A program made the position numbers and the translations under genes. Source: an uncultured Ruminococcus sp. (lineage in GTDB: Bacteria; Bacillota; Clostridia; Oscillospirales; Acutalibacteraceae). From it: 34,841 bases of DNA. The stretch covers positions 1 through 34,841 of the forward strand of contig CADBCC010000014.1 of assembly GCA_902793125.1 (NCBI GenBank), written 5' to 3'. The notes beneath the pieces were generated by a model. That model was not told the origin of the DNA, did not search any database, and worked only from the letters and a program-made list of their open reading frames with translations. Positions 452-7,708 of this stretch are shown piece by piece (position 1 is the first letter of the stretch; each line of letters opens with the position of its first letter).

Positions 452-2656
452 ATGAACAAAGTAATTAAAAAAACAGCTTCTTATTTACTTATCGTTACGC
501 TGATTTTTACCGCGTTCGCAGGTTTGCAGATTGCAAGTGAAACAGAAGCTCAGGCAGCTTCTTATCCGACAGGATACCCTAATACATATAAAAACACAGG
601 GAATTACACTAACGATATTATCGGTGTAGCAAAAACACAGGTAGGTTATAAGGAGAATTCCGTAGGTACAAAGTACGGCTATTGGTATAGCCCGAGTTTT
701 GTTGGTTTGCCTTGGTGCGCAATGTTTGTAAGTTGGTGCGCGAATCAGGCTAAAGTTCCGCAGAGCGCAATTAAAAAATACGCTTCCTGCAGTACCCAGG
801 TTGCCTGGTTTAAATCCATCGGAAGGTGGCATAACAGCAAGTACTACGGAGGAAGCTATACACCTAAAAAGGGTGACGTAGTATTCTATCGGGACGGCGG
901 CAGCTCCGCTGTATCGACTCATACGGGTATTTTAGCAGGTTTAAACGGAAATTATCTTGACGTTATCGAGGGTAACGCTACTAACGAAAGTGTTACTCAT
1001 TATACTAAAAACTCATCCCGTACACTCACAAATAAATATGTAATAGGTTACGGCGAGCCTAAATACGGACAAGCTGTTACCGAAGAAAAAGAGCCTACTA
1101 CTTTTGAAAACTGGCAGGTAAATGTTGATTCGCTTACACTCAGAGCCCAGGCTACTACAAGCTCATCGAAACTGGCTTCAATAGGATTCGGTACCGTTTT
1201 AGAAGTAACTAAGTTTACTCTCGCGGGCGGATATCTCTGGGGTTATACCAACTATAATAATAAAGCGGGTTGGTGCGCTCTTAACTATTGCGACTACGTT
1301 AACGGAAGTATTAACGGAGCTTATTATCAGCTTCCGCCTAAAGCGGACACTAAGTCTTATACGATTTGTATAAACGAAACTAAAAAGTTCACTGTATCCA
1401 ATTCCAAGGGAGCCGCATACTCGTCTTCGGACAAGTCTATCGCTACAGTTTCCAAAAAGGGTAAGATGAAAGGTATTAAAGTTGGTACCGTTACAATAAC
1501 TTGTAAGACTAAAACAGGTTCTGTTAGCTGTAAATTAAATGTTGTTAATCCGCATATTAATAAGACTAACGCGATTTCATGTATCGGAGACAGCGTAACT
1601 CTTAAAGTTATCGGAGCCAAAGGCACCGTTAAGTGGAAGAGCTCAAAGAAGAAGACCGCTACCGTAAGCAGTAAGGGTAAGGTTAAGTGCCTTAAGAAGG
1701 GTACTGTTAAAATTACCGCTAAAGTTGACGGTAAGAAGTACACTTCTACAATTAAGATTTACAAGAACCCGAGAACTTACGAGAGATTTAAAACATCTAA
1801 AAAGATTTATCTGAAAAACGCTTATAAAGGTAAGATTAATGTTATCCAGATTCCGAAATCCAAGTTATTAAAGATTAAGGAAGTAAAATATTCCAAGACT
1901 CTTACCTGGGGCAGAACAACTTACAAAGGAAGAAGCGGCTGGGTACAGCTTAACAAGTGTAAGTATAAGAACGGTTCCTTTATGGGTAAAGTATTAAAGG
2001 TAAGACCTTATCTTACTACAACTTCCAAGAAGATGTATCTGCAGAATAAATTCGCGCTTAAGTTAAAATCCGCTTCGGGAACAATTTCGTTCGCGAGCCA
2101 GAATAAGAAGATTGCGAAGATTAATAAGAAGGGTGTTGTAACAGGTACCAAGAAGGGTACAACCTACGTTACAGCTACTGTCGGAAAGACAGTTCTTAAA
2201 TGTAAGGTTGAAGTAGATAACCCCGTTATCTCAAAAACTTCCGTAAGCATCCTTAAAGGAAAGACAAAAACTCTCAAGGTTACCGGAGGAAGCGGTGTAA
2301 TAAGCTGGAAGAGCTTGAATACAAGTATCGCAACCGTAAACGCCAACGGTGTTATTACCGCTAAGAAGTACGGCGAAACATCTATTATCGCTACAAGAAA
2401 CGGAATCTCGTTAAGATGTGTTGTAAGCGTTTTAGATCCTAAGCTTTCCGCGGCTAAGCTTACGCTTAAAGTCGGCGAGTCAAAGGAGCTTAAAGTTAGC
2501 CGTTCAACCGGAGCTAAACCAAGCTGGACATCGTCCGCTCTGCCTGTAGCAACTGTTGCTGACGGCAAGGTAACAGCTCTTAAAGAGGGTAACGCAACAA
2601 TTACATGTAAAGTCAACGGCGCGGTTCTTGTCTGCGAAGTTGAAGTAAAAAAATAA
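452..2656 (+). CDS. Secreted CHAP-domain peptidoglycan amidase/endopeptidase with SH3-like and Big2 domains
   Basis: A 734-residue exported protein. Residues 1-36 form a signal peptide (Lys-rich start, hydrophobic core, end near AQAA). A CHAP domain spans about 55-205, with probable catalytic Cys89 in PWCAMF, His157 in STHTGI and Asn175 in IEGN. CHAP enzymes cut amide bonds in peptidoglycan outside the cell. An SH3-like segment follows (about 222-290, ending in Ala-Gly-Trp-Cys), then two Big2 domains (about 298-440), a second degenerate SH3-like segment (about 448-515) and three more Big2 domains (about 525-734). The Big2 and SH3-like parts probably hold the enzyme at the wall. No LPXTG motif is present. 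The ATG at 452 has AGAGGAAAAAG just upstream. The gene is monocistronic, with its own promoter and terminator. The exact bond cleaved cannot be read from sequence. Confidence 0.85.
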   Translation: MNKVIKKTASYLLIVTLIFTAFAGLQIASETEAQAASYPTGYPNTYKNTGNYTNDIIGVAKTQVGYKENSVGTKYGYWYSPSFVGLPWCAMFVSWCANQAKVPQSAIKKYASCSTQVAWFKSIGRWHNSKYYGGSYTPKKGDVVFYRDGGSSAVSTHTGILAGLNGNYLDVIEGNATNESVTHYTKNSSRTLTNKYVIGYGEPKYGQAVTEEKEPTTFENWQVNVDSLTLRAQATTSSSKLASIGFGTVLEVTKFTLAGGYLWGYTNYNNKAGWCALNYCDYVNGSINGAYYQLPPKADTKSYTICINETKKFTVSNSKGAAYSSSDKSIATVSKKGKMKGIKVGTVTITCKTKTGSVSCKLNVVNPHINKTNAISCIGDSVTLKVIGAKGTVKWKSSKKKTATVSSKGKVKCLKKGTVKITAKVDGKKYTSTIKIYKNPRTYERFKTSKKIYLKNAYKGKINVIQIPKSKLLKIKEVKYSKTLTWGRTTYKGRSGWVQLNKCKYKNGSFMGKVLKVRPYLTTTSKKMYLQNKFALKLKSASGTISFASQNKKIAKINKKGVVTGTKKGTTYVTATVGKTVLKCKVEVDNPVISKTSVSILKGKTKTLKVTGGSGVISWKSLNTSIATVNANGVITAKKYGETSIIATRNGISLRCVVSVLDPKLSAAKLTLKVGESKELKVSRSTGAKPSWTSSALPVATVADGKVTALKEGNATITCKVNGAVLVCEVEVKK

Positions 2657-6272: not shown

Positions 6273-7310
6273 TTAATTGTTTTTGCTGTCGCCTCTGTCA
6301 ATAACTATCTTGCATCCGACGCTCTCTATTCGCTTTTCAAGACAGCTTTTGCATTGGGCGCTTTCGTCACCGGTACAAACTTTGTTATCGTATAATTGGT
6401 AATCTTTTCTTACCGCTACGGGGGAAAGATTCGGCATAACAACGTTAGCTCCCGCTTTTATCCCGAGTTCTCTGCCGAGAGGATTAATTGTAGCCAAAGC
6501 CGTGGTTGCTGGCAGGAGCACTTTTGGAAGCATAATTCGGACTATGGAAATCATCAGAAGCGTCAGCTCAAGGGTTCCGTTGGGAAAATCCCTGAACTCG
6601 GTTTGAGCGTGGTGAATAAACGGCCCTAAACCGACCATCTGCGGATTAAGCTTTTTAATATAAATCAAATCTTCCGCTAAGTTTTCCGCAGTCTGGTACG
6701 GTGAACCTACCATAAATCCGCAGCCGACCTGGTATCCGATTTTCTTTAAATTCTCCAAACATTTAATTCGGGTTTCAAATTTTTGGTTTTCGGGATGAAG
6801 CTTTTCGTAGTGGGTTTTGTCGGCGGTTTCATGCCTTAAAAGATAACGGTCCGCTCCGCAGTCGAAGTAACGTTTATAGCTTTCTTTGCTTTTTTCGCCG
6901 ATAGAAAGAGTAAGAGCGCAGTCGGGATACTTTTCTTTTATTGCTTTTATTATTTCGCAAATCCGCTCGTCTGTAAAGTAAGGGTCTTCTCCTCCTTGAA
7001 GAACAAAGGTGCGGAATCCTAAATTGTAGCCCTCTTTACAGCATCTCATTATTTCATCAAAGCTTAAGCGGTAGCGACTGCAGTTTTTGTTATCCCGGCG
7101 TATACCGCAGTAAAGGCAATTTTGTTTGCAGTAATTTGTAAATTCAATCAGCCCTCGAACGTAAATTTCGTCGCCGTAGTTTTCCTTTCGAAGTTTTTCC
7201 GCCAATGCCCTCAGGCGTTCGCGGGTTTCAGCGTCCGAATTAATAAGCTCAACAAATTCCGGTTTCGACAGAATTTTATTCCGATATAATTTTTCTGCTA
7301 AATCAGTCAT
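6273..7310 (-). CDS. hydE: [FeFe]-hydrogenase maturase HydE (radical SAM)
   Basis: 345 residues, full length. HydE is the cytosolic radical-SAM enzyme that works with HydG and HydF on the 2Fe subcluster and its dithiomethylamine bridge. The radical-SAM motif is at Cys61, Cys65 and Cys68 in NYCKQNCLYCGI. The optional second-cluster motif Cx7Cx2C is also present (Cys312, Cys320, Cys323). The related family BioB is excluded by the neighbours and by this C-terminal motif. The ATG lies inside the end of the TM1266-family gene (8-nt overlap), which suggests translational coupling. Confidence 0.95.
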   Translation of the reverse strand: MTDLAEKLYRNKILSKPEFVELINSDAETRERLRALAEKLRKENYGDEIYVRGLIEFTNYCKQNCLYCGIRRDNKNCSRYRLSFDEIMRCCKEGYNLGFRTFVLQGGEDPYFTDERICEIIKAIKEKYPDCALTLSIGEKSKESYKRYFDCGADRYLLRHETADKTHYEKLHPENQKFETRIKCLENLKKIGYQVGCGFMVGSPYQTAENLAEDLIYIKKLNPQMVGLGPFIHHAQTEFRDFPNGTLELTLLMISIVRIMLPKVLLPATTALATINPLGRELGIKAGANVVMPNLSPVAVRKDYQLYDNKVCTGDESAQCKSCLEKRIESVGCKIVIDRGDSKNN

Positions 7311-7560
7311 TGAAAACGTATTTTGAGAAAGCGGTTTTAGCGCTTACCGCGTCAAGTTTTCCGAGGTTTCCCGAAAAAGCGGAAATTATATTCTGGGGAG
7401 CATCCATAACAACGCTTATTATTGAAATGCCGCGTTTTTTGTAAGGGATTCCCATTCTGCCGACAACGTAATCGCTGTAGTCGCTTATTAGTTTGTTTAC
7501 TTGTTCAACGGGATTTGAATTTTCTAAAATAATGCTTATTACCGCTACTCTTGTTTCCAT
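7303..7560 (-). CDS. TM1266-family iron-only hydrogenase system regulator
   Basis: 85 residues, the usual size for this family, whose fold resembles the ACT-like C-terminal domain of NikR. It reads as METRVAVISIILEN, then a helix with Val-Asn-Lys-Leu-Ile, VVGRMGIPY and GISIISVVMDAP. Members sit next to hydEFG genes in many Firmicutes and are presumed regulators, though they lack a DNA-binding domain and a mechanism is not established. It is the first gene of the operon, with AAGGAAAGG 7 nt before the ATG. Its leader holds an attenuator-like structure, so it is a plausible participant in controlling its own operon (inference). Confidence 0.9.
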   Translation of the reverse strand: METRVAVISIILENSNPVEQVNKLISDYSDYVVGRMGIPYKKRGISIISVVMDAPQNIISAFSGNLGKLDAVSAKTAFSKYVFND

Positions 7561-7600
7561 AATAATATCCTTTCCTTAAATCGGACAATACATATATAAT

Positions 7601-7648
7601 AAAAAAAGCTACACCGAAAGGCATAGCATTAAAATCGTTTTGCCTTTC
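7601..7648 (-). promoter_or_regulatory. Terminator/antiterminator pair in the leader of the hydrogenase-maturation operon
   Basis: On the minus strand an 8-bp stem GCTATGCC / GGTGTAGC (7627-7620 with 7615-7608, two G-U pairs, TTTC loop) is followed by seven T (7607-7601), the layout of an intrinsic terminator. It lies between the operon promoter and the first gene, and no minus-strand gene upstream needs a terminator here. Immediately upstream, GAAAGGCA (7648-7641) pairs perfectly with TGCCTTTC (7623-7616). That overlaps the terminator stem, so the two folds exclude each other. This is the geometry of an attenuator; the effector is unknown. Confidence 0.6.
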
Positions 7649-7679
7649 ACGTCAATAAAATTTCCGTGTCAGTGTTATT

Positions 7680-7708
7680 ATTTTAACACAGTTAAAGTTG
7701 AATTTCAA
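7680..7708 (-). promoter_or_regulatory. Promoter of the TM1266-hydE-hydG-hydF operon
   Basis: Minus strand TTGAAA (7708-7703), 17-bp spacer, TAAAAT (7685-7680). The predicted start of transcription near 7673 gives a leader of about 113 nt containing the attenuator-like fold. Confidence 0.65.

What the first reader, a model, noticed from the sequence alone, without database searches (positions are those of the whole stretch)
7601..7673. Attenuator-like switch in the leader of the [FeFe]-hydrogenase maturation operon
Seen: on the minus strand a terminator-shaped hairpin (7627-7608) with seven T lies between the promoter (7708-7680) and the first gene. A perfect 8-bp competing stem (7648-7641 with 7623-7616) would break it. 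No upstream minus-strand gene needs a terminator there. Inference: transcription of TM1266-hydE-hydG-hydF is controlled by conditional termination, by a ligand, a protein (perhaps the TM1266-family product) or translation of a leader peptide. I know of no described riboswitch for this operon.
Basis: partly seen in the sequence, partly recalled or inferred. Interest (0 to 1): 0.7.

Follow-up and report, generated by a model that had tools for sequence, protein, structure and literature searches.

The report
Conserved RNA switch before hydrogenase-maturation genes
The start of this bacterium's message for building [FeFe]-hydrogenases carries a small RNA shape that is conserved across many Clostridia, appears undescribed, and very probably decides whether the message is finished or cut short.

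Summary
In detail: a terminator hairpin (7627-7608, seven U) and a perfect competing stem (7648-7641:7623-7616) lie between promoter and TM1266-hydE-hydG-hydF. The real feature is larger: a conserved 5' hairpin (7672-7643) with nearly two-fold symmetric purine loops, then an antiterminator/terminator pair. Both helices covary strongly. Gene-blind searches land on TM1266/hydEFG leaders: 114 of 116 assessable DNA-pattern loci, 27 of 27 best loci in other genera of the family, 32 of 37 matches in other families of the order, 21 of 21 outside the order. No Rfam family matches; the searchable literature does not describe it. Conditional termination is strongly supported; the effector is not identified. 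Best mechanism: TM1266, a NikR-C-terminal/ACT-like protein without DNA-binding domain, binds the hairpin and shuts the operon off. No tested genome with a convincing motif lacks TM1266, even where TM1266 lies elsewhere (11 of 11; one genome untested), and 0 of 22 HydG-positive, TM1266-negative genomes has the motif. But three of those still have a plain terminator before hydG, and TM1266 leads most motif operons, so linkage could explain much. A small-molecule riboswitch remains a serious rival; a leader peptide is unlikely.

The parts
7680..7708 (-). promoter: -35 TTGAAA (7708-7703), -10 TGTTAAAAT ending at 7680
   Evidence: In 93 of 118 pattern leaders a hexamer with >=5/6 match to TATAAT lies within 32 nt upstream of CUGA (median 11 nt), control 8 of 115. 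This puts the hairpin at or near the 5' end of the transcript; start about 7673 is inferred.
7643..7672 (-). conserved 5' hairpin (sensor): C7672-G7644, U7671-A7645, G7670.A7646, A7669.A7647, CACG7668-7665 : CGUG7651-7648, G7664.A7652, A7663.G7653, AAU7662-7660 : AUU7656-7654, loop 7659-7657
   Evidence: covariation; C-G, U-A and G.A of the outer loop in 76 of 76 model-aligned copies
7641..7648 (-). 5' strand of antiterminator (GAAAGGCA); overlaps the 3' strand of the sensor hairpin
7616..7623 (-). 3' strand of antiterminator (UGCCUUUC); lies inside the 5' arm and loop of the terminator
7601..7627 (-). intrinsic terminator: hairpin 7627-7608 and U7 7607-7601
7568..7577 (-). Shine-Dalgarno-like AAGGAAAGGA before the TM1266 start codon
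   Evidence: read
7303..7560 (-). TM1266-family protein, putative regulator (TIGR03959, PF21699)
   Evidence: fold; relative 2nzc by sequence
6273..7310 (-). hydE
   Evidence: TIGR03956
4835..6301 (-). hydG
   Evidence: TIGR03955
3626..4822 (-). hydF
   Evidence: TIGR03918

Best explanation
It is a transcription attenuator built from a conserved RNA of its own family. SHOWN by comparative sequence: (1) a promoter places a 30-nt hairpin at or near the 5' end of the RNA; (2) the hairpin has two nearly identical, oppositely turned purine loops (CUGA / GAAAG around a 3-4 bp stem); (3) its 3' strand GAAAGG is also the 5' strand of an antiterminator that competes with the terminator in front of the first gene. 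INFERRED: when the hairpin is held closed, GAAAGG is masked, the terminator forms and the operon is off; when it is open, the antiterminator forms and TM1266-hydE-hydG-hydF is transcribed. INFERRED, less sure: the factor that holds it closed is the TM1266 protein, an ACT/NikR-C-terminal-like domain without a DNA-binding domain, perhaps charged with a small ligand or metal tied to hydrogenase cofactor supply. This gives feedback on TM1266 and the maturases. Confidence is about 0.95 for the conserved attenuator, 0.5 for TM1266 as the direct effector, and about 0.65 for binding meaning OFF.
For: Attenuator: terminator scan with controls. Covariation on an unfitted MAFFT alignment of 24 leaders: 15 of 20 pairs with both-sided changes, score 0.417 against shuffles 0.229 and slid versions at most 0.151. 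76 fitted copies: 266 both-sided cells against 80 in shuffles. Antiterminator: 5 of 12 pairs with both-sided changes; own strands pair over 7.52 bases against 6.90 (sd 0.12) for swapped partners, 0 of 2000 permutations. Specificity: 27 of 27 best loci from other genera of the family adjoin TM1266; 32 of 37 matching genomes from other families of the order have the match at TM1266/hyd; 114 of 116 assessable pattern loci lead into TM1266 or hyd genes; 21 of 21 loci outside the order are TM1266/hyd loci. TM1266 as effector: the motif is in 42 of 128 HydG+TM1266+ and 0 of 14 HydG+TM1266- family genomes (Fisher p 0.011) and in 49 of 79 TM1266+ against 0 of 8 HydG+TM1266- genus genomes (p 8e-4). 9 of 9 genomes whose motif is not beside TM1266 hold TM1266 elsewhere, as do G702 and G427. 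5 motif genomes have no HydG over the cut-off but all have TM1266. TM1266 has K/R at positions 4, 35, 41, 43, 65 and 75 (94-100% of 186 sequences), and its fold matches the NikR regulatory domain best after 2nzc.
Against: No binding or expression data exist here. TM1266 is the usual first gene of the operon, so loss of leader and gene together would also give the co-occurrence; sampled genomes are related, so the p-values overstate. TM1266 is present in 128 of 142 HydG+ family genomes, so 11 of 11 in trans is weak by itself. Three of the eight HydG+TM1266- genus genomes (G022, G048, G068) have a promoter-like sequence and a terminator before hydG though not the conserved hairpin; the terminators drew weak model matches in two (G022: 31.5 bits, 26.5; G048: 22.7 bits), so hydG can be under a terminator without TM1266. 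One genome with a good motif before hydG (G758, L389) has no TM1266 within the 7.5 kb read and could not be searched whole. Many TM1266+ genomes show no model match (86 of 128 HydG+TM1266+ in the family), either because variants are missed or because TM1266 does something else there. The direction (bound = OFF) rests on which strands overlap. A metabolite aptamer could look much the same.
Confidence: 0.55

Rival explanations
1. The 5' hairpin is a metabolite- or ion-binding riboswitch aptamer (OFF switch) for a compound tied to [FeFe]-hydrogenase cofactor making or uptake; TM1266 is only one of the regulated genes.
For: Very strict core (C-G, U-A, G.A in 76 of 76 model-selected copies), small size and expression-platform design are typical of riboswitches. 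Copies precede transporter genes too: an ECF S component (16 of 119 pattern loci, two with no TM1266 between), an ABC importer with a substrate-binding protein, a FecCD/ABC/NifH-like cluster. The motif sits directly before hydE or hydG without TM1266 in 7 of 119 pattern loci and before hydG in G758.
Against: Every genome with a convincing motif that was searched for it has TM1266; none of 22 HydG+TM1266- genomes has the motif; the motif persists beside TM1266 in genomes without HydG over the cut-off.
Confidence: 0.32
2. Another trans-acting factor (a different RNA-binding protein, an sRNA) or a physical cue works the switch; TM1266 acts on enzymes or on another target.
For: Nothing here shows contact between TM1266 and the RNA; TM1266 also occurs without a detectable motif; three TM1266-less genomes keep a terminator before hydG.
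Against: No other gene was seen to track the motif as TM1266 does, though only TM1266, Hyd and ECF genes were searched for systematically.
Confidence: 0.1
3. Leader-peptide (ribosome-mediated) attenuation, or a plain constitutive terminator/5' stabiliser with no switching.
For: A six-codon AUG frame overlaps the terminator in the window (7628-7608, read).
Against: An ATG behind an SD-like string occurs in only 7 of 114 leaders within -30 to +60 of the hairpin's 3' end; the hairpin starts about where transcription is expected to, leaving little room for a uORF before it; the antiterminator strands covary, which a constitutive terminator would not need.
Confidence: 0.03

Closest known systems
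Protein-operated attenuators: LicT/SacY-RAT, HutP, TRAP, PyrR (recalled, not from a call)
   Same: A conserved hairpin near the 5' end overlaps an antiterminator/terminator choice; LicT reads a hairpin with two similar internal loops.
   Different: Different sequence, different genes, and a NikR/ACT-like protein as the proposed reader; RNA binding by TM1266 is not shown.
Small riboswitches with terminator platforms, e.g. preQ1, guanidine-II (recalled)
   Same: Small conserved hairpin, transcriptional expression platform, metabolic operon.
   Different: No Rfam family matches the window or 20 related loci at gathering scores; no ligand is known.
NikR C-terminal regulatory domain / TM1266 structure 2nzc
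   Different: 85 residues, so no N-terminal DNA-binding domain; the invariant residues hold no His or Cys.

Membership tests
Transcription attenuator (intrinsic terminator with competing antiterminator) | promoter, then mutually exclusive antiterminator and terminator before the first gene | tested here: met
Transcription attenuator (intrinsic terminator with competing antiterminator) | condition-dependent termination in vivo | not testable with these tools
   needs RNA-seq/Term-seq
Any RNA family of Rfam 15 | covariance-model score at or above gathering | tested here: not met
   0 matches in the window and in 20 related loci; only chance-level matches on short stretches
Riboswitch | direct binding of a small ligand by the RNA | not testable with these tools
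   no ligand assay
Leader-peptide attenuation | conserved translated uORF in the leader | tested here: not met
   7 of 114 leaders have an ATG behind an SD-like string within -30 to +60 of the hairpin's 3' end
BglG/LicT RAT antiterminator | RAT consensus hairpin overlapping the terminator, read by a CAT domain | not tested
   recalled only; no CAT-domain gene looked for
TM1266 family (TIGR03959/PF21699) | score over curated cut-off | tested here: met
   107.2 against 60.8 bits; 100.7 against 27 bits
NikR nickel regulator | N-terminal ribbon-helix-helix DNA-binding domain plus C-terminal regulatory domain | tested here: not met
   only the C-terminal-type domain is present in 85 residues

The most novel reading that the evidence does not exclude
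A previously undescribed RNA family, spread through Clostridia, through which a stand-alone NikR/ACT-type domain (TM1266) reads a nearly two-fold symmetric hairpin and by transcription attenuation sets the supply of the [FeFe]-hydrogenase maturases and of several unassigned transporters. It would be the first RNA-binding role for this fold family that I know of (recalled), and would give the TM1266 family its function.
Probability: 0.5. Interest if true: 0.9.

Novelty: new variant of a known kind. Interest (0 to 1): 0.8.

Why it matters
[FeFe]-hydrogenases make much of the hydrogen in gut and rumen fermentation (general knowledge), yet how cells set the making of the H-cluster is poorly known (recalled), and NCBIfam names the TM1266 family only a 'putative regulator'. 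A conserved RNA with a predicted protein partner and a small set of target genes makes both questions directly testable. Its transporter targets (ECF S component, ABC importer, FecCD/NifH-like cluster) may also point to an unknown nutrient or cofactor precursor.

Tried and rejected
Single-sequence folding of 7560-7680 gives only z -1.41, so conservation, not stability, was used. Leader peptide: rejected. Known Rfam family: rejected. Weak model matches away from TM1266/hyd genes were opened in part. Those in G143, G303, G334, G122 and G291 are plain terminators at or after the ends of other genes; so, by their alignments without the CUGA..GAAAG hairpin, are those in G464, G553, G595 and G623 (G553 has no TM1266). 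G041:C29 (39.8 bits, 42.4) lies at the end of an alaS-like ORF (label by recall). G078, G091:C79, G043, G016:C6 and G089 lack a convincing hairpin or gene link. False matches therefore occur down to E about 2e-6 per genome (G143), and motif counts are by gene neighbourhood. Of the family list, 54 rows have E of 2.4e-4 or better: 45 lie at TM1266 and 9 do not (five opened as above; G204, G269, G281 and G283 not opened; G269 was left out of the table by oversight). G230 and G383 (E about 2e-3) were added to the motif set because they lie at TM1266. The other rows to E 0.01 were not opened. Alignment A3 holds a few false rows and is fitted to the model, so its counts are not used.

Selections: A1 holds 24 of the 47 leaders in which my script found both hairpin and terminator, out of 79 loci; the 23 left out were near-duplicates, long linkers or odd variants. 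A further group of same-genus leaders has a variant hairpin (GGCG..CGCC stem, e.g. G006, G013, G073) that R1 mostly misses; these count as motif-negative. The 76 copies of A2 were picked by model score, which favours conserved ones. For one search, 89 of 119 leaders had a terminator by the script's rule (84 unique used, 30 dropped). Of the 21 genus genomes without TM1266 I examined the 8 with a full-length HydG frame, and besides these the hydE region of G091 (L185, no match). The 14 family HydG+TM1266- genomes were judged by the whole-genome R1 search alone; G307 and G366 have weak hits on contigs other than the HydG one. The sets were typed in. TM1266 was not sought in the genomes of the three pattern loci that run off their contigs (L239, L277, L342), nor in G758.

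Literature: searches (listings only) and word searches in the main text of five riboswitch/ncRNA papers (PMC11109978, PMC8632094, PMC2864571, PMC6429828, PMC7266159) found no mention of hydE, hydF, hydG, hydrogenase or TM1266 in those five. The only library paper with TM1266 and hydrogenase is a genome note (PMC9679718, listing seen only). The 2017 survey of 224 RNA motifs (recalled; doi 10.1093/nar/gkx699) is not held, and supplements could not be read, so 'undescribed' means not in Rfam 15 and not in these searches.

Full report
Observation. The nearest upstream ORF with family support reads away. The two states are close in computed energy (-17.0 and -14.5 kcal/mol), and stepwise folding passes through hairpin, antiterminator and terminator in that order.

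Conservation in the genus. TM1266 is present in 79 of 100 same-genus genomes. I fetched these 79 loci. A terminator lies within 250 nt before the start codon in 62 of 74 loci (5 of 74 antisense; 0 of 71 in an upstream control). The stem changes in step (CACC/GGUG, CACG/CGUG, CGCG/CGCG). The outer C-G, U-A and G.A are the same in 76 of 76 model-aligned copies. Each strand reads YUGA-stem-GAAA, so the hairpin is nearly two-fold symmetric.

Covariation. On an alignment not fitted to any structure, 15 of 20 pairs of hairpin plus terminator show both-sided changes (score 0.417; shuffles 0.229; slid versions at most 0.151). On 76 model-fitted copies there are 266 both-sided cells against 80 in shuffles. 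The antiterminator also covaries, more weakly because its core AAAGG:CCUUU hardly varies: 5 of 12 pairs (its score of 0.145 is nearly matched by one slid version, 0.140). A leader's own strands pair over 7.52 contiguous bases against 6.90 (sd 0.12) with partners swapped among leaders, 0 of 2000 permutations (relatedness of leaders is not removed).

Range and specificity. Model R1, trained on the genus, was run over 300 genomes of the family without regard to genes: 99 genomes match at E 0.01 or better, many of them weakly. All 27 loci from other genera among the 30 best adjoin TM1266. Of 54 matches at E 2.4e-4 or better, 45 lie at TM1266; with two weaker ones the motif set is 47, of which 39 end 19-48 nt before the TM1266 match. 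Model R2 matches 51 of 345 genomes of the order. Of the 37 outside the family, 32 matches lie at TM1266 or hyd genes, one with a good hairpin runs off its contig (G613), and four are chance terminators. In the class 25 of 305 genomes match. All 21 loci outside the order are TM1266 and/or hydE/G loci: 19 have TM1266 in the locus, one has TM1266 after hydF (G982), one has hydG only (G758). A plain DNA pattern of the second hairpin type, scanned over 84,980 named genomes, stopped at 119 loci, titled as Clostridia or taxa within it, Bacillota, or 'bacterium'. Of these, 107 lead first into TM1266, 7 directly into hydE or hydG, 3 run off the contig, and 2 lead into an ECF S-component gene. A -10 hexamer lies before the hairpin in 93 of 118 (control 8 of 115), so the hairpin begins at or near the transcript start.

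Where the RNA goes, and TM1266. The motif stands before TM1266-hydE-hydG-hydF most often, but also between TM1266 and hydE (G324) or hydF (G282), and before hydE or hydG with TM1266 elsewhere (G702, a single-contig genome; G427, where a GNAT-like gene, label by recall, precedes hydG). In G982 TM1266 follows hydF at the end of the operon, and in G497 apparently too, across a contig break. In 9 of 9 named genomes whose motif is not beside TM1266, TM1266 is found elsewhere, and only one of these remote copies has a motif of its own nearby. Two remote copies lie just after hydrogenase-like and Rex-like genes (names by recall of the sequences). Conversely, HydG-positive genomes without TM1266 lack the motif: 0 of 14 in the family against 42 of 128 with TM1266 (p 0.011), 0 of 8 in the genus against 49 of 79 with TM1266 (p 8e-4). 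Against this reading, three of those eight (G022, G048, G068) keep a promoter-like sequence and a terminator before hydG, without the CUGA..GAAAG hairpin, so some other control of hydG by termination may exist there; and G758 (motif before hydG) could not be searched for TM1266. Five motif genomes have no HydG over the cut-off, all with TM1266 (G164, G238 and G340 are 56-80% complete, G142 96%, G277 92%). There TM1266 is followed by an ABC importer (G277; a substrate-binding protein in G340), a FecCD permease-ATPase-NifH-like cluster (G142) or an ECF-S-like membrane protein (G238; that label is by resemblance, its fragment has no Pfam match); G164's contig ends soon after TM1266. The RNA thus follows TM1266 at least as closely as it follows hydrogenase maturation.

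Mechanism. The hairpin's 3' strand GAAAGG is shared with the antiterminator. Closing the hairpin (by TM1266, by a ligand, or by TM1266 plus ligand) frees the terminator arm: OFF. Opening it lets GAAAGGC capture GCCUUUC: ON. Shown: the parts, their conservation and their mutual exclusion on paper. Not shown: termination in vivo, the effector, the direction.

Known or new. No Rfam 15 family matches the window or 20 relatives. The searches and papers listed under Tried and rejected do not mention it. The kind (attenuator or riboswitch-like leader) is well known; this family, its genes and its likely protein partner appear new.

Noticed in passing
L018, L025, L109 (G076, G059, G036), between leader and TM1266: An ORF of 115-123 aa resembling the four-helix-bundle / 23S rRNA intervening-sequence proteins (label from recall) sits between the attenuator and TM1266 in three same-genus genomes, apparently inserted into the leader.
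   Followed up: partly
L168, L171, L173 (G022, G048, G068), before hydG: In three TM1266-less genomes hydG has its own promoter-like sequence and a terminator in the leader but not the conserved hairpin; perhaps a second, different attenuator.
   Followed up: partly
L276, L279, L263, L333, L254, L234, L322 and others: An ECF transporter S component (PF12822) follows motif-TM1266, or the motif alone, in 16 of 119 pattern loci; its substrate is unknown and may hint at the signal.
   Followed up: partly
L358 (G142:C50): Motif-TM1266-FecCD permease-ABC ATPase-NifH-like-two NifDK-like proteins-substrate-binding protein in a genome without HydG over the cut-off: a nitrogenase-like cluster under the same leader (NifDK label by order and recall).
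   Followed up: partly
L356, L357, L369, L346, L359: TM1266 is followed by what looks like a substrate-binding protein of an ABC importer in several families, with permease and ATPase seen in L356 (labels by eye); substrate unknown.
   Followed up: partly
genus leaders such as G006, G013, G073, G075: A variant hairpin (GCUCAAGGCGGAAAUU..AUUGACGCCGAGACC) with different terminator arms; another sub-type not captured by R1.
   Followed up: no
L182 (G016:C6:71612-72056): Three weak model matches in a row on a repeat of about 180 bases before an ABC-F-like gene (label by recall); looks like a terminator-bearing intergenic repeat, not the motif.
   Followed up: no
window 452-2656: A 734-aa secreted protein with an N-terminal CHAP-like amidase region and repeated Ig-like segments (by eye, not searched).
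   Followed up: no
window 6273-6301: hydE and hydG ORFs overlap by 29 bases if the TTG start listed for hydG is used.
   Followed up: no
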